A stretch of DNA of 64,000 nucleotides, from assembly GCA_024399965.1 (NCBI GenBank), contig JAKSNJ010000004.1, positions 26,436 through 90,435 of the forward strand, in the 5' to 3' direction. Of this stretch, positions 3 to 59,450 are shown piece after piece; positions within the stretch are counted from its first letter, which is position 1, and every line of letters starts with the position of its first letter. Origin of the DNA: Paludibacteraceae bacterium. GTDB lineage: Bacteria > Bacteroidota > Bacteroidia > Bacteroidales > Paludibacteraceae. A program made the position numbers and the translations under genes. Under the pieces are notes generated by a model, which did no database searches, was not told the origin of the DNA, and saw only the letters and a list, made by a program, of their open reading frames with translations.

Positions 3-1070
3 TTCGCAGAATACGAGTTCTTAAACATCTATTCCACAAACGATGCATATCATAACAATTATCCTTTGGTATTTGAGCAAAACAATTGGAAACCCTATTC
101 CACAAATTCCACGTTAGCAGTAGGAGCATCGTCTGCACTTAACAATCTTTTGATTGGTGCTAAGTTCACCGTTCAATTTGAAGTGCCCGGCAAGACTCCG
201 CGTCAAGTTCCACCCCAACCGTCTTACTTAGATTTGAAGGTAGAGAACGAAGCCAACGGCGAAAAACTGCCGGCAACATTGGAGATTGTTAACACCAAGA
301 CCGGAAAGGTTGTCCTCAAGCCGATGCAGATGAAGAACGGTCAGAAAGCACAGAAATTGGCAAAAGGTAACTACGAGATTCGTCTCGCCATGCAAGATTT
401 CTACCCTGCCACAGCCACTTTCACTATTCCTTCCGATGGTTATCTCTTGGATACGACTCTGCAACTCCGTCACAGACCTATATTTAATGTGCGCGTGCGC
501 AATGCTGAAACAGGTATGCCTCTGCCGGCTAAAGTACAAGTTCTCCGTCAGGGAACTGCCAACGAACTCATGGCACTCAATACCGACACGGCCAACGGTG
601 CTGCCAGCACAATGTTGCAAGACACCATTCTCTATGCCCTGCATATTGATATGGTGGGATACGAGCCATACGATGGCGTTGTGACTAACATAGGCGATAA
701 CATGTTGGTTGATATGATTCCTATCAAGAAAGGTGAAGTCTTCATCCTCAAGAATATGTTCTTTGCTACCAACAAGACCAAGATTCTGCCTATGAGTGAA
801 CCTACTTTGGCTGAACTATTTGGCTTCTTGGATCGCAATCCTGAGGTTCGTATCAAGATTATGGGTCACACCGATAGCGTTGGTAAAGACCAAGCCAACC
901 AAATCCTGTCTGAGGGTCGTGCTAATGCCGTCCGCCAAGAGTTGATTGAGCGCGGTATCGCTGCCGACCGTATCGAGGCAGAAGGTTATGGTGAGACACG
1001 TCCTATTGATACCAACGACACCGACGAAGGTCGTCAGAACAACCGCCGTGTAGAAGTCGAAATATTATAA
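3..1070 (+). CDS. OmpA-family outer membrane protein, 5' end missing
   Basis: The frame is open to the window edge, so the real start lies upstream; a TTG at 66 is only an internal codon. The first ~60 codons look like the last strands of an outer-membrane beta barrel (LAVGASSALNNLLIGAKF). Two beta-sandwich modules of the carboxypeptidase-regulatory/PEGA kind follow (around nt 225-480 and 480-700), then a C-terminal OmpA peptidoglycan-binding domain from about nt 735 with the typical GHTDSVG and QNNRRVEVEIL ends. Family knowledge places the last domain in the periplasm bound to peptidoglycan. It is followed after 8 bp by two secreted proteins, so it is probably co-transcribed with them. Barrel-linker-OmpA proteins occur in Bacteroidetes envelope and type IX secretion settings, but a direct T9SS role is inference. 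Confidence 0.85.
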   Translation, partial: FAEYEFLNIYSTNDAYHNNYPLVFEQNNWKPYSTNSTLAVGASSALNNLLIGAKFTVQFEVPGKTPRQVPPQPSYLDLKVENEANGEKLPATLEIVNTKTGKVVLKPMQMKNGQKAQKLAKGNYEIRLAMQDFYPATATFTIPSDGYLLDTTLQLRHRPIFNVRVRNAETGMPLPAKVQVLRQGTANELMALNTDTANGAASTMLQDTILYALHIDMVGYEPYDGVVTNIGDNMLVDMIPIKKGEVFILKNMFFATNKTKILPMSEPTLAELFGFLDRNPEVRIKIMGHTDSVGKDQANQILSEGRANAVRQELIERGIAADRIEAEGYGETRPIDTNDTDEGRQNNRRVEVEIL

Positions 1071-3758: not shown

Positions 3759-6437
3759 ATGCGATTCAAAAAGCTTTGGTTAGTTGCACTATTGAGTGCG
3801 CAAATTGGATTAATCTTGGCCCAAACGCCTTCTACGCAAGGCAAAGATTTCTGGGTAACTTTCCTCCGAACGGCAGACGACACGCCCGAAGAGTTGCGCT
3901 TGACGTTCTCTGCAACGCAAGCTACGACAGTCACGGTAAGCAACCCTACGGCCAATTTTGTCATGCAAATTAACTTGGCAGCAGGGTCTGCACAGGAATT
4001 AAAGATACCCACTAACGTTTGGTCTGCCTGCTATAGTTCGTCAAATGAGACTCCCACCTACACGGCGCTGCATGTCACTTCTACGAACGATATATCTCTC
4101 TTTGCAGGTAACTACCGCGAAAAGTCTTTTGATGCCACCAACGTGCTGCCAACGGCGTCCCTCTTGGATGATTATCTCATTCAGGCGTACCATCCCTCTG
4201 ACCACGAGGGAAAGCCACAGGGCTCGCACTTTGCTATCGTGGCGGTAGAGGACAACACCGTTGTCGATTACTACCTCACAGCCACCACCTCTGGTGGCAA
4301 GACAGGGCACCAAACGGTCACCCTCAAAGAAGGACAGGTCTATTATGTGTGGACAGGTCTCAAAGACGGTGACAAGGCAGACCTGAGTGGTACGCGCGTA
4401 ACGGCACGTGACCACAAACCCATCGCCGTCTTCCAAGGTTGTCCGCATACCAACCTGCCCGACTCCGTCCGTGACCGTGACCACATCATTTCACAAGCTA
4501 TGCCTCTCGCTTATTGGGGCAACGAGTTCGCTATCACGGCTTCCAAGCACCACCGTCGTGACCGCGTAGCCGTCATGGCCATCAACGATGGCACGGAGGT
4601 TTATATCAATTCCAAGGACGGTGAACCCATGCTCGTACACACCTTTGATTTCTCCAAAGAGCCCAAGCAGTATTGGGAATTTGAGATAGGTGAGGCACTT
4701 GCTTATTGTGCCGATAAAGTGGGTGAGTCGCGTTATTCAGGCGAACTGCCTTTGCCGCTTGTCGTGGACTCATCGTGCTACCTCACCACTTCTTGTCCGG
4801 CCGGTGTCCATCTGTTTATGGTGTCCAACCGCTACGACAACGTCACCCCCAAGGTCAGTTCCGACACCTTGGTCAGCGACCCGGCCATGCTGTGGGTCAG
4901 TCCTATTGAGCAGGTCATCACGGACATCACTTTCTCCACCTACCACACCTCATTGGCTAAGTTGCACTATGTCAACATCATCACTTCGGCGGCCAACGTG
5001 CCCTCTATGCAACTGACTACCAACAACATGCCGGTCACCAACATTGCTTCTTATTTCCACCCTATCATGGGTAATCCGGATTATTGTTTCGCACGTATCC
5101 AACTCGAAGACCAAATCCTCACCACTGCTTGCAACTACCATCTGAGTGGCGATATGGGCTTCCTCGCACACGTGTACGGCTATGGTGAACGTGAGTCTTA
5201 TGCCTACTCCTGCGGTTCATCTACGGTCAGCCGCAGCATTATGCTCAACGGCACACCTATCAGCATTGACAGCGTGGCTGCCAACCATTTCTGCGCAGGG
5301 GACACCATTGAAATCAAACTCAATATCGGGCACAACACCTACCAAAAAGTGACCTACGACTACGGCGACGGTACTTCGGATATCCTTGCTTCCAATGTTG
5401 CCAAACACGTGTACGAGACACGCGGCTGGTACGATATGATGGTCACCGCCACCTATATTAACACGTGTACGCGCATGGAGAATAGTGAGCACTTGCGTGT
5501 TTCCTTCTATGTCGCCAAGCCCGACACTATCTTCCGTGACTCCTCTTATTGCGAACCGTACGATTATACGGGCGAACTCATTTCGTCGGATACCGTTACT
5601 TACGATTGCGACTCTGTTACCGTCTTTACCATTCACCATCGTTTGGCATCTGTGCCCACCGAGGTCAATGAGCAGGGCAAAGATTCCTTCTTGCTACACG
5701 GCACATGGATTTATGAATCAGGCGATTACACCTATACGTTCTCCAATAGTCAGAACTGCGACAGTGTTGTCACTTACCACGTCAAAATCGTACATTGCTT
5801 GGAGATTCAGGTGCCCACCGACGTCAATCCTGAGTGCGACGGGCAAACATCTATCATGATTCCGTTCTCCTATACCAAGGGCGAGATTGACCACGCTTCC
5901 TTCATCACCGTTGTAGATGGACGCGAACGCGCCTTCGAACTCACCGTTAGTTCCGACAATACCTATTTCTTGCTCGATGTCAGCGAGTTCGTGCCGGGCA
6001 CGGTCATCGGTCGTATCGAAGCGTACGATGCCATCTGTGAACAGACGCTCACCTTCCCCATCACCGTCTTTGTGCGCCTGCCCAATTCTATCTTGCACCA
6101 GAAATACGACAACGTCGTCGGTGTCACCTTGGAGGCCATTGAGAAATACGGCATACAGGGCTACCAATGGTACTTGGACGGACAACTGCAAGACAGCCAA
6201 ACCACGTCCATCTATTATCAGGATTTGGGCTTTGCGCAAGGTCAATCCATGGAGGTAATGGTACTCCTGCCTAACGGCAAATGGATTCAGTCCTGCAAAC
6301 TCAATCTTGTGGCACAGAGCGAGCAAAGCAACCCCTTCCGTTCCGATGAACAGGCACAAAAAGTGATTCAGCGCGGAAATATCTATATCCAGTTGGACGG
6401 ACATTTGTACAACACCTTAGGTGAGCAAGTGGATTAA
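3759..6437 (+). CDS. Secreted IgGFc-binding-like protein with PKD domain (copy 2)
   Basis: 892 residues, a paralog of the preceding gene with the same architecture: signal peptide (MRFKKLWLVALLSAQIGLILA), TPSTQGKDFWVTF start of the IgGFc_binding-like region, a PKD-type motif (YDYGDG, about residue 532), then the shared C-terminal region from residue 632 and the tail YNTLGEQVD. The N-terminal two-thirds are clearly diverged from copy 1, including an extra segment near VGESRYSGELPLPLVVD, while the C-terminal third is nearly identical at DNA level. This suggests paralogs with distinct binding regions and a homogenised C-terminal module. The next gene starts inside its last 17 bases. Exported surface location is inferred from the signal peptide and tail; no enzymatic motif was seen. 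Confidence 0.8.
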   Translation: MRFKKLWLVALLSAQIGLILAQTPSTQGKDFWVTFLRTADDTPEELRLTFSATQATTVTVSNPTANFVMQINLAAGSAQELKIPTNVWSACYSSSNETPTYTALHVTSTNDISLFAGNYREKSFDATNVLPTASLLDDYLIQAYHPSDHEGKPQGSHFAIVAVEDNTVVDYYLTATTSGGKTGHQTVTLKEGQVYYVWTGLKDGDKADLSGTRVTARDHKPIAVFQGCPHTNLPDSVRDRDHIISQAMPLAYWGNEFAITASKHHRRDRVAVMAINDGTEVYINSKDGEPMLVHTFDFSKEPKQYWEFEIGEALAYCADKVGESRYSGELPLPLVVDSSCYLTTSCPAGVHLFMVSNRYDNVTPKVSSDTLVSDPAMLWVSPIEQVITDITFSTYHTSLAKLHYVNIITSAANVPSMQLTTNNMPVTNIASYFHPIMGNPDYCFARIQLEDQILTTACNYHLSGDMGFLAHVYGYGERESYAYSCGSSTVSRSIMLNGTPISIDSVAANHFCAGDTIEIKLNIGHNTYQKVTYDYGDGTSDILASNVAKHVYETRGWYDMMVTATYINTCTRMENSEHLRVSFYVAKPDTIFRDSSYCEPYDYTGELISSDTVTYDCDSVTVFTIHHRLASVPTEVNEQGKDSFLLHGTWIYESGDYTYTFSNSQNCDSVVTYHVKIVHCLEIQVPTDVNPECDGQTSIMIPFSYTKGEIDHASFITVVDGRERAFELTVSSDNTYFLLDVSEFVPGTVIGRIEAYDAICEQTLTFPITVFVRLPNSILHQKYDNVVGVTLEAIEKYGIQGYQWYLDGQLQDSQTTSIYYQDLGFAQGQSMEVMVLLPNGKWIQSCKLNLVAQSEQSNPFRSDEQAQKVIQRGNIYIQLDGHLYNTLGEQVD
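5654..6355 (+). repeat. ~700-bp direct repeat, copy 2
   Basis: Second copy of the repeat at 2971-3672. It codes in frame for residues 632 onward of the second PKD protein. Identity begins abruptly at a GCCCACCGAG sequence and ends near a GGCACAAAAAG sequence (GGCTCAAAAAG in copy 1). Confidence 0.9.
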
Positions 6438-7245
6438 CCATAGTAAAACTTTTCTAATTCTGGGTCTGATGTTCTGCATCGGACTCGGAATTTGTATAGC
6501 CCTCTGCAACAAAATAGACATGCACCTGTGGCTCAACGGCACGCACACCGCTGCAGGCGATTTTTTCTTCCGTTATTACACCGTAGTCGGCGAATGGGTA
6601 CCATACGTCATTGTTGCCTTTTTGCTGTTCTACAAGGCCGGCTGGGCTTCGTTCTTGCTGGCAGATGTCGCCCTTAGCGGACTGATTGGGCAGGGATTGA
6701 AGCACCTCTTTGATACCGACCGCCCGCTTACCTACTTTGCCAACCATGCGCCGGACATTCAACTCCAACTCGTCGAGGGGGTGCGTATGAGTCGTTTTTA
6801 CTCCTTCCCCAGCGGTCACACCATCACCTTTTTTGCCCTCTTCCTGACCTTAACCGTTTTGCTCTGCGAGATTTTGCCATGCAACAAACTGCTCCGCAAA
6901 ATTAAGTCCCTTTCAAACACGGGTTTTTCCCGACGGCGAACCGACGGCGAACCGACGGCAAACCGACAGTCGACCGACAGTCGACCGACAGTCGACCGAC
7001 AGTCGAAGCATACGTTAAGCATCGGTTATATAATCCTTATTAACCTCTTTTGCTTCCTTTTGGCGGTCTTAGGTGCCTACTCGCGCATCTACCTCAATCA
7101 GCATTTTGCCGAAGACATATTCGGTGGAGCGATTATCGGCATACTTACCACCGTCGCCCTGTTATTGGCCGTGCCCAAGTTGGAGCACACTGCTTTCTGG
7201 AATTGGAACATTCACAAATGCCACAGGAATGACGCCAACCGTTGA
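6421..7245 (+). CDS. PAP2-family membrane phosphatase with repeat insertion
   Basis: 274 residues from a GTG start overlapping the previous gene by 17 bp. All three PAP2 signatures are present: KHLFDTDRP (94-102), PSGH (130-133) and SRIYLNQHFAED (221-232), giving the catalytic histidines, arginines and aspartate. Several hydrophobic segments indicate an integral membrane protein. PAP2 enzymes remove phosphate from lipid phosphates such as undecaprenyl pyrophosphate, phosphatidate or lipid A; the substrate here is not known. Residues about 167-195 (TGFSRRRTDGEP and following) are an arginine/threonine-rich insertion encoded by an 11-bp tandem repeat, in the loop between the PSGH helix and the last two membrane segments, so the catalytic core should survive. 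The 3' end overlaps the next gene. Confidence 0.85.
   Translation: MSKWINHSKTFLILGLMFCIGLGICIALCNKIDMHLWLNGTHTAAGDFFFRYYTVVGEWVPYVIVAFLLFYKAGWASFLLADVALSGLIGQGLKHLFDTDRPLTYFANHAPDIQLQLVEGVRMSRFYSFPSGHTITFFALFLTLTVLLCEILPCNKLLRKIKSLSNTGFSRRRTDGEPTANRQSTDSRPTVDRQSKHTLSIGYIILINLFCFLLAVLGAYSRIYLNQHFAEDIFGGAIIGILTTVALLLAVPKLEHTAFWNWNIHKCHRNDANR
6919..7015 (+). repeat. In-gene 11-bp tandem element, copy 1 (7 units)
   Basis: Left flank ACGGGTTTTT (6919-6928), then seven 11-bp units at 6930-7006: CCGACGGCGAA twice, CCGACGGCAAA once, CCGACAGTCGA four times; right flank AGCATACGT (7007-7015). The same flanks and unit order occur at 56504-56589 in an unrelated gene. The units contain no stop triplet in any frame on either strand. 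Confidence 0.92.
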
Positions 7246-35015: not shown

Positions 35016-37964
35016 TTAGAAAGTAGCATTTACACCAATTTGGAATTGGCGGGTAGAAGGATAGAAATCCACATAGTTGATACCCGTATTCTCAATAGCC
35101 GTTGTGTTCACACGGTCCGGATCCATACCCGAGTATTTCGAAATGGTAAATACATTTTGTACGGTAAAGTTGACGTGCAAACGTTGGCAATACTTGTTTT
35201 CAGGCAGTGGGATATTGTACCCAACGGTGATATTATCCAACTTCAAGAAACTTGCATCCTCCAAATAGTAATCCGAGAAATCAGCTTGGAAGAAAGTTCC
35301 ATTTCCCGATGCAAAGTCATTTACATCTTTCATAAAGACGTTCAAACCGTTGCTACCTCTATTGGGAGCATATACCCAACGGGCTACGTTCAGCGCTTTG
35401 TTGCCAACCATACCGCGGAAGAACAAGCTAATGTCAAGGTCTTTCCAACGAATGGTATTGTTCCAACCGTAAGACATCTTCGGCTGTGCAGAGCCAAGGT
35501 ATTGTTTGTCGTTGTCGTCCAATTTGCCATTATTGTCATAGTCCTCATATATGCAGTTGTGATTTGCATCAAATTCACCCGTCCACTTATATCCATAGAA
35601 GCAGCCAACAGGTTGACCCTCCATCATCTTCTGGGTATTAGTACCATTTACTTTGTTACCCGACACGTTTCCGCACCATTTTACGTCATAGTTGAAGCCC
35701 TTAGACGGGTCGGATAGTTTGTCGATACGGTTCTTGTTGAACGCCATCGTCCAAGTGGTAGTCCATTCCCAGTTCTTGGTCTTAACAGGCACACCCGAAA
35801 TGGTGTATTCCATACCCATAGCGGTCATCTCGCCAGCATTGGCTAACAAGGTAGAGTATTGATACGGAGGTGTGGGCACGTTGTAGTACCACAGCAAATC
35901 TTTCGTGTTACGCAGATAGAAGTCGAATGTACCATACAAGCGATTCTGCAAGAAGGAGAAATCAAGACCTAAGTTGTACTCGTATTTCTTTTCCCAACGC
36001 AAATCGGGGTTGGCATTTTGCGAAACGGTGTACGATTTGGCTACGATGCCGTGGTTGTTGAAATCATCACCTACCGACAACATCTCTACAGACATCAGGT
36101 CGCTACCAACGTTGTTACCCGTAATACCGAAACCGAAACGGAGTTTGAGGTCATTACACCACTTTTGGTCACGCATGAAGTCCTCACCTGCGATGCGCCA
36201 ACCTACACTGGCAGCAGGGAAATAACCCCAACGGTTGTTCTTACCAAAACGAGAAGATGCCTCAGCACGCAAGCTGACAGATGCCAGATATTTCTCATTG
36301 TAGTTATAGTTAGCACGGCCAAAGAAGGAAATCAGCGTATTCTCCGAGCGATAGGAAGACATACCCGAATAGTCCTTGTCAATAATACCGTCACCCATGC
36401 TGTAATAACCCGAAGCATCCGTAGCATAATTACCATTCCAAATATCAGAGCCATCGTACCAGAAGTTTTGGTACGAACCACCCAACACAGCAGTCAGGGT
36501 GTGACCATTCCACTGTCCGGCATAGTCAATCGTTCCTTCATATAATTGTGACAAGGTGCGCGAAGTGGTACGAGACGATTTATTCGCATCGTTTGCTTTG
36601 TAGTAATCTTTGTATGTTCTCCAGTATTTATAGCCATCACTCTCGTCCAAAGCAGCAAAGCCACTCACTTTCAAGCCGGGAACGGCCTTGATGTCCACCG
36701 TTGCTTTGACACTACCATGGAAGACATTACCATCGTTGTATTCCTCTCTTTGCTCATTATCAGCGATGGGGTTTGCCGTAACGGTACCAACGGGCTCGTA
36801 GTATGTGCCATCTGCATTGTAAATAGGCATTGTAGGATTAAGAATAGCACCAGAGGTCAGGTCACCCATGAACTTATTGTTCTTATAGTGCATATACGAG
36901 AAGTCGTATTGCAGTTTGAGCCAGCCCTCAAAAGCGGTTTGGTCAGCAGCAAACTTGGCTTGAATCTCATTACGGTCGTTCTTCTTAGCCATACCTTCGG
37001 CATATTTATAACCGATAGCGCCACGATACGAGAAATTCTTGGTGGCACCGGCGATAGCCACATCGTGGTGATGTGTCAAACCGAAGTCACGCAACTGCTC
37101 TCCATACCAGTCGGTGGAAGCACCTTTGTCGGTACCCTTAATCCACGTACCGGTCGTTTCGTTTAATTTGCGATATTGGTCAGCAGTAGCCATACCCGTC
37201 TTGGTAGCCACCGTCGAGAAGCTGACATAACCGGCATATTCCAAGTTGAATTTACCCTTTTCCAAATTCGGGTCCGAAACTCCACGTTTGGTGGTAATAA
37301 TAATCACACCGTTGGTACCACGTGTACCATAAATAGCGGCAGCCGAACCATCTTTTAACACGTCCATCGAAAGGATTTCCTCCGGCGAGATATTGTCAAT
37401 CACCGATACAGGCACACCATCTACGATGTACAAAGGTGTACTACCGGTACCTTGCCCCAAGGTAGATGTTCCACGAATCTGCACCGAGAAGCCCGTATTG
37501 GTAGGGTCATCACCACCGGCACGAATAACGGTCAAACCGGCAACACGACCTTGCAGCAAGCCCATTGGGTCACTCTTAACACCCGGGTTGAAGTCTTCGG
37601 CTTTCATACTCGTTACCGAACCAGTAACCTCTTTTTTGCGTTGCGAGCCATAACCGATGGCAACAACTTCGTTGAGTTGGACGGTTTCTTCCTTCAAACG
37701 AATAATCATGCCTTTTTTGGCAGCCACCGTCTGCGTGGCAAAACCGATGTAACTAACTTGTACCTGCGTACCTTCAGCCACATTTAACTCAAAGACACCG
37801 TCAAAGTCAGTAACCGTACCATTGGTAGTACCTACGGCTACCACGCTGGCACCGATGGCAGGTTCGCCACTGGCATCCTCCAAAACGGTACCTTTGATTT
37901 GCGCCTGCAACGCTACACACGATGCCAACGCAAACAACATAAGTAAAACGTGTTTTTGTTTCAT
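35016..37964 (-). CDS. SusC/RagA-family TonB-dependent outer membrane transporter
   Basis: 982 residues. Signal peptide, then a carboxypeptidase-regulatory-like domain (IKGTVLEDASGEPAIGASV, GTTNGTVTDFDGVFEL), a TonB plug with the typical VAIGYGSQRKKEVTGSV and TPLYIVDGVPV, GSAAAIYGTRGTNGVIIITTK, and a 22-strand barrel to the C-terminal phenylalanine (GVNATF). SusC proteins import oligosaccharides across the outer membrane in a TonB-dependent manner with SusD. No minus-strand promoter was found in the 151-bp gap to the upstream transporter gene, so co-transcription with it is likely. The same gap holds five 11-bp tandem repeats. Confidence 0.96.
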   Translation of the reverse strand: MKQKHVLLMLFALASCVALQAQIKGTVLEDASGEPAIGASVVAVGTTNGTVTDFDGVFELNVAEGTQVQVSYIGFATQTVAAKKGMIIRLKEETVQLNEVVAIGYGSQRKKEVTGSVTSMKAEDFNPGVKSDPMGLLQGRVAGLTVIRAGGDDPTNTGFSVQIRGTSTLGQGTGSTPLYIVDGVPVSVIDNISPEEILSMDVLKDGSAAAIYGTRGTNGVIIITTKRGVSDPNLEKGKFNLEYAGYVSFSTVATKTGMATADQYRKLNETTGTWIKGTDKGASTDWYGEQLRDFGLTHHHDVAIAGATKNFSYRGAIGYKYAEGMAKKNDRNEIQAKFAADQTAFEGWLKLQYDFSYMHYKNNKFMGDLTSGAILNPTMPIYNADGTYYEPVGTVTANPIADNEQREEYNDGNVFHGSVKATVDIKAVPGLKVSGFAALDESDGYKYWRTYKDYYKANDANKSSRTTSRTLSQLYEGTIDYAGQWNGHTLTAVLGGSYQNFWYDGSDIWNGNYATDASGYYSMGDGIIDKDYSGMSSYRSENTLISFFGRANYNYNEKYLASVSLRAEASSRFGKNNRWGYFPAASVGWRIAGEDFMRDQKWCNDLKLRFGFGITGNNVGSDLMSVEMLSVGDDFNNHGIVAKSYTVSQNANPDLRWEKKYEYNLGLDFSFLQNRLYGTFDFYLRNTKDLLWYYNVPTPPYQYSTLLANAGEMTAMGMEYTISGVPVKTKNWEWTTTWTMAFNKNRIDKLSDPSKGFNYDVKWCGNVSGNKVNGTNTQKMMEGQPVGCFYGYKWTGEFDANHNCIYEDYDNNGKLDDNDKQYLGSAQPKMSYGWNNTIRWKDLDISLFFRGMVGNKALNVARWVYAPNRGSNGLNVFMKDVNDFASGNGTFFQADFSDYYLEDASFLKLDNITVGYNIPLPENKYCQRLHVNFTVQNVFTISKYSGMDPDRVNTTAIENTGINYVDFYPSTRQFQIGVNATF

Positions 37965-38019: not shown

Positions 38020-38074
38020 ATCGTTCGTCCATCGTTCGCTCACCGTTCGTATATCGTTCGTATATCGTACATAG
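38020..38074. repeat. 11-bp tandem repeat (5 units) upstream of susC
   Basis: Units ATCGTTCGTCC, ATCGTTCGCTC, ACCGTTCGTAT, ATCGTTCGTAT, ATCGTACATAG run end to end. They lie in the untranslated leader of the susC-like gene, between two TTTGATAGT-like flanks. Period matches the 11-bp units found inside two genes elsewhere in the window, but the unit sequence differs. Confidence 0.85.
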
Positions 38075-49847: not shown

Positions 49848-51014
49848 ATGAACGATACCGTTCGTTACATATTGTCTTTCTTGCTGTACGGCGATACGGC
49901 CGCTACCACGCAGATTGCCTATTGTAGCCCGAATGAGACCTATCCCGACTGCCCTGTTGTCATTTTGGGAGAGGGGCTGAATCAACCCTTGCACTATCCC
50001 GATTGTACCACTCCTCAGGTTGAGTCACTTCCCAACGGGCACTACCTCATTCGTACCGACCTCATTTACAACACGTTCTTCTTCATCTCCCGTGCAGAAG
50101 AAGTGATTAACAAGCAGCGCGACCGGCACGGGCGGTTTTTGGCGCGCTACTCACGACTGAGTTCCAACGATTGGCAAATACCGTTGATAGACGAATACAG
50201 CCGTTTGTTGCTCAAATTACTCAATTTGCCCTTACCCGTACCTGAGTTCTCGGGCATCTGGCTCACGCACGACATTGACACCATCGCCTATTATCGCCAC
50301 TTACGGGGGGCGTTGGGAGGAATCAGACGCGGACAGAGAAAAGAGGTCCTTGCCTCGTGGAAAAACATACACAACGACCCGGCTTTTACCTTCCCTTGGA
50401 TGATGGAGCAGGACCAACAAGTCGCCCAAGCAGATGTCATCTTCTTTGTGAAAGACACACCCGGTCGCGGATTGGATTATCCCCAGTACTCATTGGCTCA
50501 TAATTCGGCCTTGCAATCAGTATACGATGAGTATAGGATGAGTATAGGATCACGCCTTCATTTTGGACTGCATTCCGGTGCGTACGAAAACGCCCCGTTG
50601 GCATATCGGCATAACTGCCCACTCATCAACTATCAACTGCATCGCAGTCATTACCTCTCCTGCTCTATCGAACGTATGCAACAATTGGTGGACTTTGGAG
50701 TAACGGACGATTACACGATGGGATTTGCCGACCAAGCCGGATTTCGTTTGCAGACCACACGCCCTGTGCGTTGGATTAATCCGCTAACCAAGCAACTTAC
50801 CTCTCTCACCCTTCATCCTCTCACTATTATGGACTGCACGCTCAGCAATACGGACTATATGCACCTGAACGAAGACGAGGCATATTTCTACGCTTCTGAA
50901 CTGATTGACAAAGTCCGCCAGCACCACGGCGAACTCAATCTGCTGTGGCACAATAGTATTTTCGTAGAAGGATATCACTCTTCTCTATATCCCAAGATTC
51001 TATCTCTGCTATGA
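49848..51014 (+). CDS. Polysaccharide deacetylase-like protein
   Basis: 388 residues, no signal peptide. LTHDIDT (the T-H-D metal motif) and LHFGLHSGAYEN, with later FADQAGFR and LLWHNSIF, match the polysaccharide-deacetylase-like proteins of the DUF7033 type found in Bacteroidales surface-glycan clusters. Family members act on N-acetyl sugars, but this subgroup's substrate is unknown. It starts 1 bp after the preceding glycosyltransferase gene and overlaps wecB by 4 bp. A perfect two-unit 11-bp tandem duplication at 50526-50547 lies in the coding region and leaves the frame open, so the residues around YDEYRMSIGS may be an altered loop. Confidence 0.8.
   Translation: MNDTVRYILSFLLYGDTAATTQIAYCSPNETYPDCPVVILGEGLNQPLHYPDCTTPQVESLPNGHYLIRTDLIYNTFFFISRAEEVINKQRDRHGRFLARYSRLSSNDWQIPLIDEYSRLLLKLLNLPLPVPEFSGIWLTHDIDTIAYYRHLRGALGGIRRGQRKEVLASWKNIHNDPAFTFPWMMEQDQQVAQADVIFFVKDTPGRGLDYPQYSLAHNSALQSVYDEYRMSIGSRLHFGLHSGAYENAPLAYRHNCPLINYQLHRSHYLSCSIERMQQLVDFGVTDDYTMGFADQAGFRLQTTRPVRWINPLTKQLTSLTLHPLTIMDCTLSNTDYMHLNEDEAYFYASELIDKVRQHHGELNLLWHNSIFVEGYHSSLYPKILSLL
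50526..50547 (+). repeat. 11-bp tandem duplication inside the deacetylase-like gene
   Basis: GATGAGTATAG occurs twice without interruption (50526-50536, 50537-50547), followed by GAT. A net 11-bp gain would shift the frame, so either the ancestral sequence had both copies or a compensating change exists. Confidence 0.85.
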
Positions 51015-54344: not shown

Positions 54345-56022
54345 ACAACATCTCTTATTCCTACTCTGTTGGGTCATTCTGCTTTTGCCCAACATTGCCA
54401 CGATGATTTTGAGCACGGACCTCACCTATTCGCTCGCGAAAGAAGTGGTCTATCTCGTTGTGGTGTTGGTGTGTCTTTTCCTGCCGGCGACTTTCCTGCG
54501 CGCACGCACGTATTTTATTATAGAAGGTGTCTTGGCACTCTTTTGGGCACCGATTGAGATGGCTTCTCTCTCCCTCAACCACATGACCGTCGCCCCTCAT
54601 TTTATGGCGATTATCTTTGAAACAAATCGCGTTGAGGCATTTGAATTATTGGGGTCTGTTTGGCCGCTGCTGATACTGATTGCCGGTATTTGGGTCATCT
54701 ATTGGTGGGCAGTCGTTAAGATCGACAATCAGTTCCTCTTTTCGTCTGTTATTCGCAAACTCACGTGGATTATGCTCCCCATTTTAGCCGTTGGAGGAGT
54801 GGTTGCTTCGCTGTGTATTCTCCCTGATAAAGGAAACGGCTATTCCACCAAGGAGCAACTATCTTTGGCAGTGGATAATGTGGCAATGAAGTTTCACAAG
54901 ATATACCCGTTTGACATATATATCGCCACCGCACAATATCGCCAAGAACAGGCGTATATACAGGAGTTAAATAAGCAATTAGAGACCTTTGATTTTGGCA
55001 TAACGCCTCAAAATGACACCATTGAGGAGCATTACATCGTAATCATCGGGGAGGCAGCACGTTACGACCATTTTCATTTCAACGGCTATGCACGTGCCAC
55101 ATCGCCCTACTTGGACACCATCCCAAATGTCTTTAGCATGAGTCACTGGTACAGTCAGGCCAACCTCACGCGCAATGCCGTCAGTTTGATGGTGACGCGC
55201 GCCGATTTAGACAATCGCGAACGGGCTTTCCAAGAGAAATCCATCGTCGAGGCATTTGCCGAAGCCGGCTATCAAACGGCGTGGCTGAGTTGCCAAACGC
55301 TGATGGACTTTGAGAAACGTATTGCGCAAACAACTGATTTTCAGTACGAACAAGTGGCAGGACTGTCTGCTGAAGTTGCCTTGGACAGCATACTGCCGTA
55401 TCAGGCAGGACTGTTATTCGCCAATCACCCTGCCCGCAAAACGTTCTTCCTCCTGCACCCGATGGGTAGCCACCTCAAGTACGACCAACGCTATTCGGCA
55501 GAGTATGAACGCTTTACGCCTGCTGTCACAAGCAGCGACGGCTATGCGGTACTTTCCGTTGAGAATAAATCGCGTATCATCAACGCCTACGACAACACCA
55601 TTTTATACACCGACTACGTCATCGGTCGCAGTATCAATTTGCTGCGTCAGCAGTCTGGTTGTTGTGCCCTGATTTATGTTTCCGACCATGGCGAGAATCT
55701 CTTTGACGACGGGCGTAACCTCTCTGTTCACGGCTCATACGAGGGCACTATTTACGAGGCGCACGTACCCTGTTTTGTGTGGGTCAACGATGCCTATCGT
55801 GCCACCTATCCGGACAAAGTAGCTGCCTTGCAGGCCAATCTGCACACACCCGTATCGCATGACGTTCTTTTCTATTCGTTGGCGGACATGGCAGATATAG
55901 CGGCCATCGTTGACAGCACAAAAAGTATATATTCACCCTATCTCGTGCCGCAAGATACCGTGCGTATGCTCACCGGCAACAATGTGATAACCTCATTTAT
56001 TCCTGACCATGAACAATACTGA
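54331..56022 (+). CDS. Phosphoethanolamine transferase (EptA-like)
   Basis: 563 residues. Four to five N-terminal membrane helices (to about residue 165) carry a periplasmic alkaline-phosphatase-fold domain. Catalytic features: E241 in IIGEAARYDHFHFNGY, nucleophile T280 in SQANLTRNAVS, H376/H381 in HPMGSH, and D452-H453 in SDHGENLFDD. This is the EptA/EptB/LTA-synthase-like group that moves phosphoethanolamine from phosphatidylethanolamine onto lipid A or other glycans. Its place at the end of the glycosyltransferase block suggests it decorates the lipopolysaccharide or glycan made there. Such modification can affect cationic-peptide sensitivity in other species; that is family knowledge only. 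Confidence 0.9.
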   Translation: MKINKQHLLFLLCWVILLLPNIATMILSTDLTYSLAKEVVYLVVVLVCLFLPATFLRARTYFIIEGVLALFWAPIEMASLSLNHMTVAPHFMAIIFETNRVEAFELLGSVWPLLILIAGIWVIYWWAVVKIDNQFLFSSVIRKLTWIMLPILAVGGVVASLCILPDKGNGYSTKEQLSLAVDNVAMKFHKIYPFDIYIATAQYRQEQAYIQELNKQLETFDFGITPQNDTIEEHYIVIIGEAARYDHFHFNGYARATSPYLDTIPNVFSMSHWYSQANLTRNAVSLMVTRADLDNRERAFQEKSIVEAFAEAGYQTAWLSCQTLMDFEKRIAQTTDFQYEQVAGLSAEVALDSILPYQAGLLFANHPARKTFFLLHPMGSHLKYDQRYSAEYERFTPAVTSSDGYAVLSVENKSRIINAYDNTILYTDYVIGRSINLLRQQSGCCALIYVSDHGENLFDDGRNLSVHGSYEGTIYEAHVPCFVWVNDAYRATYPDKVAALQANLHTPVSHDVLFYSLADMADIAAIVDSTKSIYSPYLVPQDTVRMLTGNNVITSFIPDHEQY

Positions 56023-57376
56023 CTTACTTTCTCTCCTTCACCGCGAAGTGGTGCCTGCAATCGGTTGCACGGAGCCCATTTGCGTCGCCTTGTGCGTGGC
56101 ACGTGCCAAGGAGCGTTTAGGTGCAGAACCTGACGCCATCACGGTGCGCCTGAGCAAGAATATCTACAAGAACGCCATGTCAGTCGGCATACCCAATACG
56201 GGCATGACGGGACTGCCTATCGCCATCGCTTTGGGGGCTACTGTCGGGCAGAGTGAATGGGGGCTGGAGGTCTTGCGCAATACCACACCCGAAGCCGTCG
56301 CCTATGCCAAGTCCTATATCGGGCGCGTGCCTATACAGATTGAGATAGAAAACAATGCCCCTGATATACTCTACGTACACGCCATTGTAGAAAAACAAGC
56401 AGAAACCACGATTCCAACGCACTCGCCGGCATCCAACCATCCCCTAACTGCCACCGCCACCATTCAGGGCGAGCATACGCACTTTGTAGAGCAAGGGTCT
56501 GATACGGGTTTTTGCCGACGGCGAACCGACGGCGAACCGACAGCGAACCGACAGTCGACCGACGGTCGACCGACGGTCGAAGCATACGTGACCGACACGT
56601 CGTGCCACCAACAGGACACCGCCGAACTGACCTTGCGGCAGGTTTATGATTTCGCCATGACGGTTGCCACGGAGGACGTTCACTTCCTGCTCGAAGGGGC
56701 TGAGATAAATCTTCAAGCCGCCGAATATGCCTTTGAGCACAAGTGCGGACATTGCTTAGGGCAGATATTACGCAAGCAGGACAACAGTATCTTTGAGCAG
56801 ATTTTGGCCTATACCTCGGGTGCCTGTGATGCACGTATGTCCGGTGCTATGGTGCCCGTTATGTCCAATTCGGGCAGTGGCAATCAGGGAATCAGTTGTT
56901 CCGTACCCGTGCTGCTCTACGCCCATCATATAGGGGCTACCGACGAGCAGACCCTGCGTGCGTTGGCACTAAGTAATCTCACCGTTATTTATATCAAGCA
57001 GTCCTTGGGACGCCTGTCTGCGCTCTGTGGCTGTGTAGTGGCTGCCACCGGTTCGGCGTGCGGTATTACCTACCTCAAGGGCGGTCAATACATGGAAATC
57101 ACCTATGCCGTCAAGAATATGATTGCCAATATATCGGGTATGATATGTGACGGCGCCAAACCCGGTTGCGCCCTCAAAGTGACCAGCGGTGTTGCTACGG
57201 CAGTCATTGCTGCATCGTTGGCGATGGAACACAGTTATCCCGACGCCACAGAAGGCATCATAGACGAGGACATCGACCAGACCATTCACAACCTGACGCA
57301 TATCGGGCACGATGGAATGATACAAACAGACGATTTGATACTCAATATAATGACGCATAAATGTTCCAAGAAATGA
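56009..57376 (+). CDS. UPF0597 (YhaM/CyuA-like) serine/cysteine dehydratase-like protein, with repeat insertion
   Basis: 455 residues. Starts LLHREVVPAIGCTEPICVALCV, the conserved start of the L-serine dehydratase alpha-like UPF0597 family, with SGSGNQGI, GCVVAATGSACGITYLKGG and ICDGAKPGCALKV carrying conserved cysteines for an iron-sulfur centre. E. coli CyuA (YhaM) degrades L-cysteine; that activity here is likely but unproven. Residues about 165-193 (DTGFCRRRTDGEPTA and on) are an insertion encoded by the same 11-bp element as in the PAP2 gene and lie in a linker between the two halves. No other part of the protein is unusual. Overlaps the previous gene by 14 bp. Confidence 0.88.
   Translation: MNNTDLLSLLHREVVPAIGCTEPICVALCVARAKERLGAEPDAITVRLSKNIYKNAMSVGIPNTGMTGLPIAIALGATVGQSEWGLEVLRNTTPEAVAYAKSYIGRVPIQIEIENNAPDILYVHAIVEKQAETTIPTHSPASNHPLTATATIQGEHTHFVEQGSDTGFCRRRTDGEPTANRQSTDGRPTVEAYVTDTSCHQQDTAELTLRQVYDFAMTVATEDVHFLLEGAEINLQAAEYAFEHKCGHCLGQILRKQDNSIFEQILAYTSGACDARMSGAMVPVMSNSGSGNQGISCSVPVLLYAHHIGATDEQTLRALALSNLTVIYIKQSLGRLSALCGCVVAATGSACGITYLKGGQYMEITYAVKNMIANISGMICDGAKPGCALKVTSGVATAVIAASLAMEHSYPDATEGIIDEDIDQTIHNLTHIGHDGMIQTDDLILNIMTHKCSKK
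56504..56589 (+). repeat. In-gene 11-bp tandem element, copy 2 (6 units)
   Basis: ACGGGTTTTT (56504-56513), six units at 56515-56580 (CCGACGGCGAA twice, CCGACAGCGAA, CCGACAGTCGA, CCGACGGTCGA twice), then AGCATACGT (56581-56589). Same flanks and unit order as 6919-7015. The upstream part is read in the same frame in both genes; because the unit count differs by one, the right flank is read in a different frame. Confidence 0.92.
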
Positions 57377-59433
57377 AACGGTTTTATGTTTTATTGCTCA
57401 GTTGGTTTGGTGCAATCGGACTTGCGCACGCCACCACGTATTATTGTTCGCCTACCGGCACAGGCGATGGCAATTCGTATGCCACCCCCTGCTCTTTCAG
57501 CAAGGGGCTGAACCGTATCTCTCAGCCCGGCGACACCTTATATTTATTAGGTGGGCAGTATGATTTACAGAAGACAACACTCAACTACAATGGTACCAAA
57601 TCCAAGATGCTTGTTATTAGCGGTTACCCGGGTGAACAAGCTATTTTGGACTTTAGAAAGGTCACTTATGGTACACGTGGTTTGCAGATTTCCAAGACAT
57701 CAACCTACGTCCACATTAAGAACCTCACCCTCCGTTATTCGGGCAAGAACAACCTTTATAATGAGGGCTCCTATTGTCGCTTTGAGAACTTGGACATTTA
57801 CGGTTCGGCTGATTCGGGCTGCCAGATGAAGGGAGGCGGTAATAACCTGATTATCAACTGCGATAGTCATGATAATTTCGACTACGAATTAGGCGGTTTG
57901 ACAGCGTGTGACTTTGGTGGCAATGCCGATGGCTTTGCCGATAAACAGCATACAGGAGCCCCCAATCATTATATCGGTTGCCGTTCGTGGAATAACTCAG
58001 ACGACGGGTGGGACTTCTTCGACCGCACCTGTACCGGCACAATCATCGAGAACTGTATCTGCTATCAGAACGGACCGCAATACTACGACATGCGCAATCA
58101 CGCACGGTACCAAACGGACAAAGCATGGTTTGACCAATTCCAAACGCCTATTACCGTTACCACCAAGACGGGCGAAAAGAAGACCTGCTCGTTGGAGAAA
58201 TACTACAACAATGGAAACGGGAACGGCTTCAAAGTGGGCGGTAACTACAGCCGGCACGATGTTACCGTACACCACTGTTTGGCTATTGCCAATCGTGTCA
58301 AGGGCTTTGACCAGAACAACGATGATGGCACAATGGAGTTCTATAACTGCACCGGCTACGACAATGGGGCAAACTTCGGTTTTACCACTAAATATGGACA
58401 GAATATATTGGTCAATAACCTGTCGTATAATAGCCGTGGTTCGGAGAGTTATCGGGCACAGACGGTCTTGCGTAATGAATACAACTCGTGGAACGATGCC
58501 ATACACCCTGCTGCCAATACATTTGCATCTATGGACACCACCGTTCTGTTGGGTCAACGGCAGGCAGATGGTGCTTTGCCTGAGTGGGATTTACTGCATC
58601 CGTTGGCTAACTCGCCACTCATTGATGCCGGCACACCGCTGACCTATACCTATTACGGACAAGCACCCGAATTGGGCTGCTATGAATATGTGGTAGGTGA
58701 ACCCGTTATACCTGACCCGGGACCACAACCAAAACCGGAAGACACAACGGGTATTAAGATTGCCTATGTTACCGTTCCCAATGCTGCTGCCGACCAACGC
58801 TTATTGCAGGCGCTCAAGGCAGATGCCACGTTTTATATCAAGGTGATAGATGCCGGCGATGAGTTGCATTTGGACGGTTGCCAAGCCGTTATTCTCAGTC
58901 CGGTGCCCAAGAGTACGGCGTATGGCGCACAGTCGCTCAAGGACACGTCTCTACCCTTCTTATGTCTCAAACCCTTTATGGGCAAGAATACCGTCTGGAA
59001 CTGGTGTACGCCTGCCAATACAGCAGAGTCAACGATTACCGTTACTGCCCCCAATCACCCACTCTTTGCCAATCTGCCCGGCACCTTTGCGCTCTATTCG
59101 AAAGTGTCCACCAACGGCGTAGCTACTATGTCTAACTGGCTATTGGACAACATCACCACCCTTGCCACATGCAAGCAAGCCGATGCTATCGTGGAGCACA
59201 ACAAGATGCTGATGTTGGGGCTGTCCGAATACTCCCTGTCGGACATTACGGACGAGGGTATTCGACTCATTCGCAATGCCCTGTACTATATTACCGACAC
59301 GCCCTATACCCCACTGGTTAGCCCTCGGTGGGAGGACAGACCCACCAAGTACCTGCGTAACGGCGTACTCTATATCCGCCACCACAACCGGCAGATAAAT
59401 ATATTAGGCGAGGTGGTAGGTAGTAGGTTGTAG
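57373..59433 (+). CDS. Secreted right-handed beta-helix protein (PL9-like)
   Basis: 686 residues from ATG 57373, which overlaps the previous stop; ATG 57361 in the same frame is possible but spoils the signal peptide (MKRFYVLLLSWFGAIGLAHA). The first ~440 residues form a parallel beta-helix with repeated turns and the segment GGNADGFADKQHTGAPNHYIGCRSWNNSDDGWDFF, split here as NADGFADK, CRSWNNSDDGWDFF, which resembles the catalytic region of PL9-type pectate lyases. A Pro-rich linker leads to a ~200-residue domain of unknown type. The end LRNGVLYIRHHNRQINILGE is the short C-terminal tail of secreted Bacteroidales proteins. Lyase activity is probable but not shown. The coding end runs into a heptamer repeat. 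Confidence 0.78.
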   Translation: MKRFYVLLLSWFGAIGLAHATTYYCSPTGTGDGNSYATPCSFSKGLNRISQPGDTLYLLGGQYDLQKTTLNYNGTKSKMLVISGYPGEQAILDFRKVTYGTRGLQISKTSTYVHIKNLTLRYSGKNNLYNEGSYCRFENLDIYGSADSGCQMKGGGNNLIINCDSHDNFDYELGGLTACDFGGNADGFADKQHTGAPNHYIGCRSWNNSDDGWDFFDRTCTGTIIENCICYQNGPQYYDMRNHARYQTDKAWFDQFQTPITVTTKTGEKKTCSLEKYYNNGNGNGFKVGGNYSRHDVTVHHCLAIANRVKGFDQNNDDGTMEFYNCTGYDNGANFGFTTKYGQNILVNNLSYNSRGSESYRAQTVLRNEYNSWNDAIHPAANTFASMDTTVLLGQRQADGALPEWDLLHPLANSPLIDAGTPLTYTYYGQAPELGCYEYVVGEPVIPDPGPQPKPEDTTGIKIAYVTVPNAAADQRLLQALKADATFYIKVIDAGDELHLDGCQAVILSPVPKSTAYGAQSLKDTSLPFLCLKPFMGKNTVWNWCTPANTAESTITVTAPNHPLFANLPGTFALYSKVSTNGVATMSNWLLDNITTLATCKQADAIVEHNKMLMLGLSEYSLSDITDEGIRLIRNALYYITDTPYTPLVSPRWEDRPTKYLRNGVLYIRHHNRQINILGEVVGSRL

Positions 59434-59450
59434 GTAGTAGGTCGTAGGTG
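59416..59450 (+). repeat. Heptamer tandem repeat at the end of the beta-helix gene
   Basis: Five 7-bp units GTAGGTA, GTAGGTT, GTAGGTA, GTAGGTC, GTAGGTG spanning the stop codon (59431-59433), so the last residues (VVGSRL) come from the repeat. Confidence 0.85.

What the first reader, a model, noticed from the sequence alone, without database searches (positions are those of the whole stretch)
6919..7015. Same 11-bp-unit element inserted in frame into two unrelated genes (PAP2 copy)
An element with fixed 10-bp and 9-bp flanks and seven 11-bp units interrupts a loop of a PAP2 phosphatase. An 86-bp sister copy with the same flanks and unit order lies in a UPF0597 gene 49 kb away. Independent expansion cannot explain shared flanks, so the element has been copied or transposed. 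It has no stop triplet in any of six frames, so it can enter coding DNA harmlessly. It resembles the idea of Rickettsia palindromic elements but is not palindromic. I know of no named element like it.
Basis: seen in the sequence. Interest (0 to 1): 0.88.

Follow-up and report, generated by a model that had tools for sequence, protein, structure and literature searches.

The report
Eleven-base repeats dispersed inside core genes
Uncultured rumen and gut bacteria of one genus carry dispersed copies of a short DNA element built from 11-base repeats, many of them inside the reading frames of everyday enzymes, where they should add a short tolerated peptide; it matches no named element family that we compared it with.

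Summary
Two copies (6919-7015 in a PAP2 gene, 56504-56589 in an SDH_alpha/UPF0597 gene) share head, unit order and tail. The genome has 27 such places. The array pattern is in 20 of 37 genomes of the genus and 0 of 24 of other families. In 22 places the copies share 11 bp before and 22 bp after the units, then little or nothing: a bounded, copied element. Hosts include IleS, FolC, DapA, PrmC, IspG, NadD and TsaB; the aligned orthologs of both window genes lack it. Between close species coding copies kept exact length (15 of 15 comparisons), whereas noncoding ones changed in 7 of 9, four times by whole units. A second 11-bp family sits in the same IleS loop in other species, and unrelated period-11 arrays are about 30 times denser here than in other families. 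It works like Rickettsia palindromic elements but is built of direct repeats without terminal inverted repeats. No mobilising enzyme or target duplication was found; how it spreads is unproven. Six-frame stop-freeness fails for the genus's commonest unit.

The parts
6421..7245 (+). PAP2 phosphatase gene (host of copy 1), GTG start
   Evidence: ORF, translation, Pfam PF01569 8.4e-22 over residues 79-253, across the insert
6919..6929 (+). head of copy 1 (ACGGGTTTTT + C)
   Evidence: the 11 bp before the units are 69.7% identical pairwise in 22 places vs 32.1% shuffled
6930..6962 (+). three A-type 11-bp units (CCGACGGCGAA x2, CCGACGGCAAA)
6963..7006 (+). four B-type 11-bp units (CCGACAGTCGA)
7007..7028 (+). 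tail of copy 1; first 9 bp AGCATACGT as reported, conservation among copies of the genome reaches about 22 bp
56009..57376 (+).
   Evidence: Pfam PF03313 3.3e-63
56504..56514 (+). head of copy 2 (ACGGGTTTTT + G)
56515..56547 (+). three A-type units (CCGACGGCGAA x2, CCGACAGCGAA)
56548..56580 (+). three B-type units (CCGACAGTCGA, CCGACGGTCGA x2)
56581..56602 (+). tail of copy 2 (AGCATACGTGACCGACAC...); its first 18 bp are identical to the tail of the FolC copy (L006)

Best explanation
It is a genus-specific, non-autonomous dispersed repeat of roughly 55-120 bp. Shown: it is made of 11-bp direct units (a near-perfect core of 2-8 units with degenerate 11-bp-periodic flanks), sits at 16-27 places in each of the four genomes that I counted, is bounded, and lies in frame inside many conserved enzymes as well as between genes. 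Because 11 is not a multiple of 3, every forward frame reads the same 11-residue peptide (PTANRRRTDGE, PTVNRRSTDGQ) and three units are exactly 11 codons, so a copy landing in a tolerant loop, linker, terminus or signal-peptide leader can be kept. Inferred: new copies are made from existing arrays by a copying process such as template switching or ectopic conversion seeded by 11-bp-register matches; arrays gain or lose whole units by slippage or unequal exchange; selection removes frame-breaking, stop-introducing or fold-breaking products. Sites are mostly old: close species share them.
For: 27 places in G000; by my grouping, 17 in G115, 18 in G129, 16 in G022. Three-unit pattern in 20 of 61 genomes, all in the genus (20 of 37, G000 included), 0 of 24 other families. 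Shared head and tail with limits, in 22 of the 27 places: -11..0 69.7%, 0..11 49.4%, 11..22 40.8% pairwise against 25-32% shuffled; -22..-11 34.3% vs 25.8%; near background beyond. Aligned orthologs of PAP2 and SDH_alpha lack the array: spacing 84 aa vs 33-71 aa in 29 PAP2 orthologs, 54 vs 14-41 aa in the 14 of 19 SDH_alpha rows that parsed. Hosts named by Pfam/NCBIfam. 87 of 152 arrays (>=3 units, >=400 bp flanks, orthologs not removed) lie in a stop-free frame of >=200 aa, 76 sense and 11 antisense; 44 host clusters: 37 sense, 6 antisense, 1 both. Orthologous arrays: 15 comparisons in 9 coding groups (frame >=300 aa) all differ by 0 bp; 9 comparisons in 7 noncoding groups differ by 11, 11, 11, 0, -22, 0, 67, 34, 59. 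14 of the 16 G115 array loci fetched match an array locus of G129 or G022, a 15th matches one in G022. Flank autocorrelation at lag 11 is 0.352 and 0.346 vs 0.25-0.30 at other lags except 22.
Against: No fresh insertion with a clean empty site was found; site A shows block presence or absence of about 100 bp, but with about 9 bp of other sequence in the empty alleles, and gain cannot be told from loss. No mobilising enzyme is known: the only class searched, Y1_Tnp (RAYT/IS200 type), is absent from three multi-array genomes (G000, G115, G004) but present in three others (G129, G022, G035) and in one (G008) where one search found no array. All data are draft metagenome-type genomes; no expression or protein data. 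The loops of PAP2 and SDH_alpha are hypervariable, so insertion points cannot be given to the base. Periodic flanks could partly reflect convergence under a DNA-binding constraint. Copy 1 folds somewhat better than shuffles as RNA (z -2.16, 6 of 200 shuffles as good).
Confidence: 0.66

Rival explanations
1. The arrays are binding-site clusters for a genus-specific DNA-binding protein that contacts one site per helical turn, as OmpR/PhoB-family regulators do; copies are kept wherever they lie, for regulation or chromosome organisation, and units change along with the protein.
For: Period 11 is close to one helical turn. Degenerate flanking units keep GTNA 11 bp apart (offsets 7 and 18 downstream: 35 and 24 of 90 arrays, mean 1.6 per offset). 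E. coli ArcA sites hold 2-5 direct repeats spaced 11 bp (passages of PMC3798270). Sites are shared between close species while units differ.
Against: 87 of 152 arrays lie in frames of >=200 aa, many of metabolic enzymes. Little promoter enrichment: TAnnTTTG within 55 bp upstream in 6 of 90, within 60 bp on the other side in 3 of 90. A and B units and the second family CGAAAACGAGA lack GTCAA. Many unrelated period-11 arrays exist. No cognate protein was looked for.
Confidence: 0.2
2. Local minisatellites: a replication or repair habit of this genus makes 7- and 11-bp tandem arrays everywhere, tolerant loops fill with them, and similarity among CCGAC arrays is convergence or homogenisation rather than copying.
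For: Period-11 arrays with other units: 18 in 399,620 bp vs 1 in 672,622 bp (p=1.9e-7); period 7: 33 vs 10. The IleS loop holds CCGAC arrays in 23, other period-11 arrays in 19 and period-7 arrays in 12 of 129 parsed species.
Against: Shared non-unit head and tail at unrelated loci, recurrent order of unit variants (by eye) and an 18-bp identical tail in the FolC and SDH_alpha copies need copying.
Confidence: 0.1
3. A classical MITE-like element moved in trans by a transposase or RAYT.
For: Dispersed, bounded, intergenic and intragenic, both orientations. Y1_Tnp is present in 3 of the 6 multi-array genomes searched (G129, G022, G035).
Against: No terminal inverted repeats; inverted pairs come from the B units; no target duplication at the one informative site; Y1_Tnp absent from G000, G115 and G004. 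Other transposase classes were not searched.
Confidence: 0.04

Closest known systems
Rickettsia palindromic elements (RPE)
   Same: Small dispersed repeats, intergenic and in frame inside conserved protein genes, read as a peptide (passages of PMC10969869; section 9 of PMC2229807).
   Different: RPEs are 105-146 bp stem-loops with terminal inverted repeats in Rickettsia; this is an 11-bp direct-repeat array in Bacteroidales with a frame-independent peptide and changeable unit number.
Enterobacterial RU-1/RU-2/RU-3
   Same: Small mobile repeats also found fused in frame to genes (abstract of PMC2759123).
   Different: 103-168 bp MITE-like units of enterobacteria; the abstract mentions no 11-bp units.
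PARCEL (palindromic amphipathic repeat coding elements)
   Same: Tandem repeats that code and appear to have spread in and between genomes (abstract of PMC2996958).
   Different: 25-residue amphipathic domains with dyad symmetry, in ORFs lacking assigned functions, across distant clades.
ArcA/PhoB-type direct-repeat operators
   Same: Several direct repeats 11 bp apart (passages of PMC3798270).
   Different: Regulatory sites bound by a known regulator; here over half of the counted copies lie in long coding frames and no binder is known.
Bacterial VNTR / minisatellites
   Same: Unit number varies by whole units between species in some noncoding copies.
   Different: VNTR loci do not normally share head and tail flanks at unrelated loci (recalled).

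Membership tests
Rickettsia palindromic element | long stem-loop with terminal inverted repeats | tested here: not met
   RNA folding z -2.16, -1.64, -0.52 (6, 12 and 55 of 200 shuffles as good); inverted pairs come from the quasi-palindromic B units, none joins head and tail
Rickettsia palindromic element | in-frame insertion into conserved protein genes | tested here: met
Rickettsia palindromic element | found in Rickettsia | tested here: not met
   Bacteroidales titles; RPE sequences themselves were not compared
MITE | terminal inverted repeats and target-site duplication | tested here: inconclusive
   No TIR; one gained-or-lost site without duplication, polarity unknown
REP / RAYT | a RAYT (Y1 HUH) gene in the genome that carries the repeat | tested here: not met
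   Y1_Tnp in 4 of 14 genomes (G129, G022, G035, G008); absent from G000, G115, G004, which carry many arrays; genomes are incomplete
Minisatellite / VNTR | tandem units whose number varies by whole units | tested here: met
   Noncoding orthologs differ by 11 or -22 in 4 of 9 comparisons, by 34, 59, 67 in three and by 0 in two
Minisatellite / VNTR | locus-specific flanks | tested here: not met
   Shared head of about 11 bp and tail of about 22 bp
OmpR/PhoB-type operator array | direct repeats about 11 bp centre to centre | tested here: met
OmpR/PhoB-type operator array | located at promoters | tested here: not met
   87 of 152 in frames >=200 aa; TAnnTTTG 6 of 90 vs 3 of 90
OmpR/PhoB-type operator array | bound by a cognate regulator | not testable with these tools
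   needs binding experiments
PARCEL | 25-residue amphipathic unit | tested here: not met
   unit peptide is 11 residues
CRISPR array | repeats separated by unique spacers | tested here: not met
   units are contiguous
Rfam structured RNA | match to a curated family at gathering score | tested here: not met
   the window gives only two tRNAs

The most novel reading that the evidence does not exclude
This genus has an active process that copies and extends DNA in steps of one helical turn (11 bp, with a 7-bp class beside it) whatever the sequence. It has produced at least two dispersed array families (CCGACGGYNRA and CGANAACGANN) that stand in for one another at the same protein loops, so that peptides in core enzymes are being written by a DNA-level, frame-independent process rather than by selection for protein sequence.
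Probability: 0.25. Interest if true: 0.87.

Novelty: new variant of a known kind. Interest (0 to 1): 0.74.

Why it matters
Frequent in-frame residence of dispersed elements has been described as an unusual feature of Rickettsia (PMC10969869 passages). Here a gut/rumen genus with more than 150 held species has such elements at shared sites in an aminoacyl-tRNA synthetase and in NAD, folate, lysine and isoprenoid enzymes, with a second unit family at some of the same sites. That gives many natural replicates to test how DNA repeats become protein sequence, why the step is 11 bp, and how such arrays spread without a known transposase.

Tried and rejected
Promoter hypothesis: in several loci the arrays looked about 25 bp downstream of Bacteroidetes -7 boxes (consensus recalled), but the count (6 of 90 vs 3 of 90) does not support a rule. 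Genome-wide exclusive switch of unit type: suggested by the IleS loops, then weakened because G142, G151, G170, G106 and G012 carry both types. Uptake-sequence idea: 61 one-mismatch unit hits vs 36 expected in the window, but 16 of the 61 lie in the two arrays, leaving 45. RAYT as the mover: mixed result, absent in half of the multi-array genomes searched. Rfam: negative. Structure prediction of the PAP2 insert: tool switched off.

Searches for print: (open-licence PubMed Central only). None listed an 11-bp in-frame dispersed element; searches returned no paper. Ogata 2000 and 2002 were seen only as references in PMC10969869; a try for the 2002 paper found it not held.

PAP2: 29 of the 54 other genomes with a homolog were aligned (the best-scoring loci). 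SDH_alpha: 17 of 19 matching genomes were aligned (the others are G000 and G074, which matches the repeat only); 5 of 19 rows did not parse, and two genomes contribute two rows each. IleS: 135 of 151 genomes matched; I had loops from 131, 129 parsed, G157 and G019 failed, and G133, G146, G120, G122 were not fetched. In 'none' means no tandem repeat over my score limit; some such loops (G070, G098) look periodic by eye. One search used 22 of 27 places, without the paralogous L027 and four two-unit B-only places. Period-11 samples: 20 genus stretches, on contigs named by earlier hits but at positions chosen blind; 40 stretches of other families, the second batch from 9 genomes; 5 of the 18 genus arrays lie in one stretch (L269). 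In one search, three comparisons (L356, L351, L352) could not be anchored, and frames of 209-232 aa at L338-L340 were counted as noncoding there although L338-L340 are among the 44 host clusters. Site A: G159 could not be read.

Full report
OBSERVATION. The element at 6919-7015 and its sister at 56504-56589 are real. Both have head ACGGGTTTTT plus one base, three A-type units (CCGACGGCGAA and near variants), then four or three B-type units (CCGACAGTCGA/CCGACGGTCGA), then AGCATACGT. Both lie inside open frames: a PAP2 protein (PF01569) and an SDH_alpha protein (PF03313).

GENOME. The window lies in an unnamed 1.66 Mb, 83% complete genome (G000). A blastn search with copy 1 gives 24 matches, itself included. 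A two-unit pattern gives 99 hits, which I group into 27 places; the reversed pattern gives 1. In six of these places A and B units form separate modules, A upstream, 38-107 bp apart. In 22 of the 27 places the 11 bp before the units are 69.7% identical pairwise (32.1% after shuffling), the 11 bp before those 34.3% (25.8%), the first 11 bp after the units 49.4% (25.1%) and the next 11 bp 40.8% (25.3%); beyond 22 bp on either side identity is near background. So the element is bounded, and its copies at unrelated genes are related by copying.

DISTRIBUTION. The three-unit pattern is in 20 of 61 genomes tested, all in the same genus (20 of 37), and in 0 of 24 genomes from other families of the order, one per family. 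The common unit in most other species is CCGACGGTCAA, often with CCGACAGTCAA last, with a different head (about CAATC) and tail (about GCYAANGTCA).

ANATOMY. The flanks are themselves degenerate 11-bp units: over 90 arrays, autocorrelation at lag 11 is 0.352 upstream and 0.346 downstream, against 0.25-0.30 at other lags except 22 (0.319, 0.305). GTNA recurs 7 and 18 bp after the core (35 and 24 of 90). In G173 the segment around one core reads by eye as nine 11-mers with one 2-bp interruption (alignment). RNA folding is weakly better than shuffles for the two window copies and not for a third (z -2.16, -1.64, -0.52), and inverted pairs come from the quasi-palindromic B units.

CODING. An 11-bp unit gives the same 11-residue peptide in all three frames of a strand: PTANRRRTDGE for A, PTVDRRSTDGR for B, PTVNRRSTDGQ for the common unit of other species. 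A and B are stop-free in six frames, but so are 100% and 68% of their letter shuffles, and CCGACGGTCAA has an antisense stop. Of 166 distinct arrays of three or more units, 152 have 400 bp on each side; 87 of these lie in a stop-free frame of at least 200 aa, 76 sense and 11 antisense (orthologs not removed). The 44 host clusters are 37 sense, 6 antisense, 1 mixed; some of these frames (for example L040, L154, L338-L340) are probably leaders or not genes. Hosts supported by Pfam or NCBIfam include FolC, DapA, PrmC, IspG/GcpE, NadD, a GlgB-like protein, radical SAM, M16 peptidase, an FAD oxidase, YfhO, IleS, TsaB (antisense), a GH149 phosphorylase, a GltA-type fusion, an ABC-F ATPase, and GldE-like and AroA-like proteins below their cut-offs. 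Another recurrent place, by eye, is the leader between start codon and hydrophobic signal stretch of surface-type proteins.

ORTHOLOGS. PAP2: 55 of 61 genus genomes, G000 included, have a match; 29 others were aligned and none shows the array; the FPSGH-to-YSRIYL spacing is 84 aa in G000 and 33-71 aa in the 29. SDH_alpha: 19 of 61 match, of which G000 is one and G074 matches only the repeat; the other 17 genomes (19 rows) were aligned and none shows the array; spacing 54 aa vs 14-41 aa in 14 rows parsed. Both loops are hypervariable, so the insertion point cannot be fixed to the base.

CLOSE SPECIES. Seven close genomes have 19-46 two-unit hits each. Of 16 G115 array loci fetched, 14 match an array locus of G129 or G022 over at least part of their length and a 15th one in G022. 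In 9 coding groups (frame of at least 300 aa) all 15 measured length differences are 0; in 7 noncoding groups the 9 differences are 11, 11, 11, 0, -22, 0, 67, 34 and 59; three comparisons could not be anchored. Site A, after the end of a gene, is occupied in G129, G173 and G148 and empty in G115, G022 and G165 (G159 not readable): about 100 bp are present or absent as a block, with about 9 bp of other sequence in the empty alleles and no duplication; gain and loss cannot be told apart.

ONE LOOP, MANY ARRAYS. In IleS (135 of 151 genomes match) the loop between ALYANVD and EIDRWI was parsed in 129 species: 23 hold a CCGAC array, all in sense; 19 another period-11 array; 12 a period-7 array; 14 other periods; in 61 none was detected. 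Fifteen of the 23 CCGAC loops and all six loops with CGAAAACGAG-type units are 27 aa long, and several of both share flanking residues (WQPA, GYA/GRT; by eye). The second unit is itself dispersed: of seven genomes, chosen mostly because their IleS loop has such a unit, six match, five of them at 3-7 places. Its hosts, by eye, include IleS, a gene like the AroA-like host at the position where CCGAC arrays sit in other species, a ValS-like gene (name recalled) and a surface-protein leader (17 loci read). Both types coexist in G142, G151, G170, G106 and G012, while G064 has only the second; no second-type array was seen in 1.29 Mb of redundant loci, mostly from CCGAC carriers.

BACKGROUND. Period-11 arrays of at least 2.7 copies, the CCGAC family excluded, number 18 in 399,620 bp of the genus (11 of 20 stretches) and 1 in 672,622 bp of other families (1 of 40 stretches): 45 vs 1.5 per Mb, p=1.9e-7. 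Period 7: 33 vs 10 (p=1.2e-7); period 14: 6 vs 1 (p=0.012); period 8: 6 vs 2 (p=0.058); periods 9, 10, 12, 15 do not differ. The window shows this too at 38020-38068 and 50519-50550.

MECHANISM. Shown: bounded copied element; in-frame residence; shared sites between close species; whole-unit change in some noncoding copies; unchanged length in coding copies. Inferred: spread by copying from existing arrays through short in-register matches, growth by slippage or unequal exchange, and purifying selection on frame and fold. Not shown: the copying machinery. Y1_Tnp, the only enzyme class searched, is missing from G000, G115 and G004 but present in G129, G022 and G035. A DNA-binding function is the main rival: ArcA sites have 2-5 direct repeats 11 bp apart (passages of PMC3798270).

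KNOWN KINDS. Nearest in behaviour are Rickettsia palindromic elements (passages of PMC10969869; section 9 of PMC2229807), then RU elements (abstract) and PARCELs (abstract). It is not an RPE: no stem-loop with terminal inverted repeats, and another phylum. Ten literature searches listed nothing like it in an open-licence library; most subscription papers are not covered.

VERDICT. Observation confirmed, interpretation partly supported; a new variant of the in-frame dispersed-repeat kind, with an unexplained 11-bp step.

Noticed in passing
window 38020-38068: Another period-11 array, units ATCGTTCGTNN, in the intergenic stretch upstream of the minus-strand ORF 35016-37964; unrelated to the CCGAC units.
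   Followed up: partly
window 50519-50550: Period-11 array AGTATAGGATG (2.9 copies) inside the 388-aa ORF 49848-51014.
   Followed up: no
window 59411-59449: Period-7 array AGGTAGT (5.6 copies) over the 3' end of ORF 57361-59433; period-7 arrays are also in excess in the genus.
   Followed up: partly
L031, L043, L046, L057, L131, L133, L137, L159, L166: Surface-type protein genes carry arrays, in either orientation, between an apparent start codon and the signal-peptide hydrophobic stretch, giving long leaders (read by eye).
   Followed up: partly
L170 and L022: NadD carries a B-type array in G000 (L022) and a similar gene an A-type array at about the same loop in another species (L170, named by eye).
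   Followed up: no
L059, L122: Two Pedobacter contigs have three-unit CCGACGGNAGA-like arrays; probably unrelated.
   Followed up: no
L025 and L027: Two surface-type leaders on different contigs of G000 share a long A-spacer-B segment, as if leaders were exchanged between paralogs.
   Followed up: no
L205, L209 (SDH_alpha orthologs); IleS loops of G065 and G034: Other peptides that look derived from repeats (SPKSSPKGKDFNSEEKHPS, SSLSLGEGRGEV) sit in the same variable loops, so the loops accept other sequence too.
   Followed up: no
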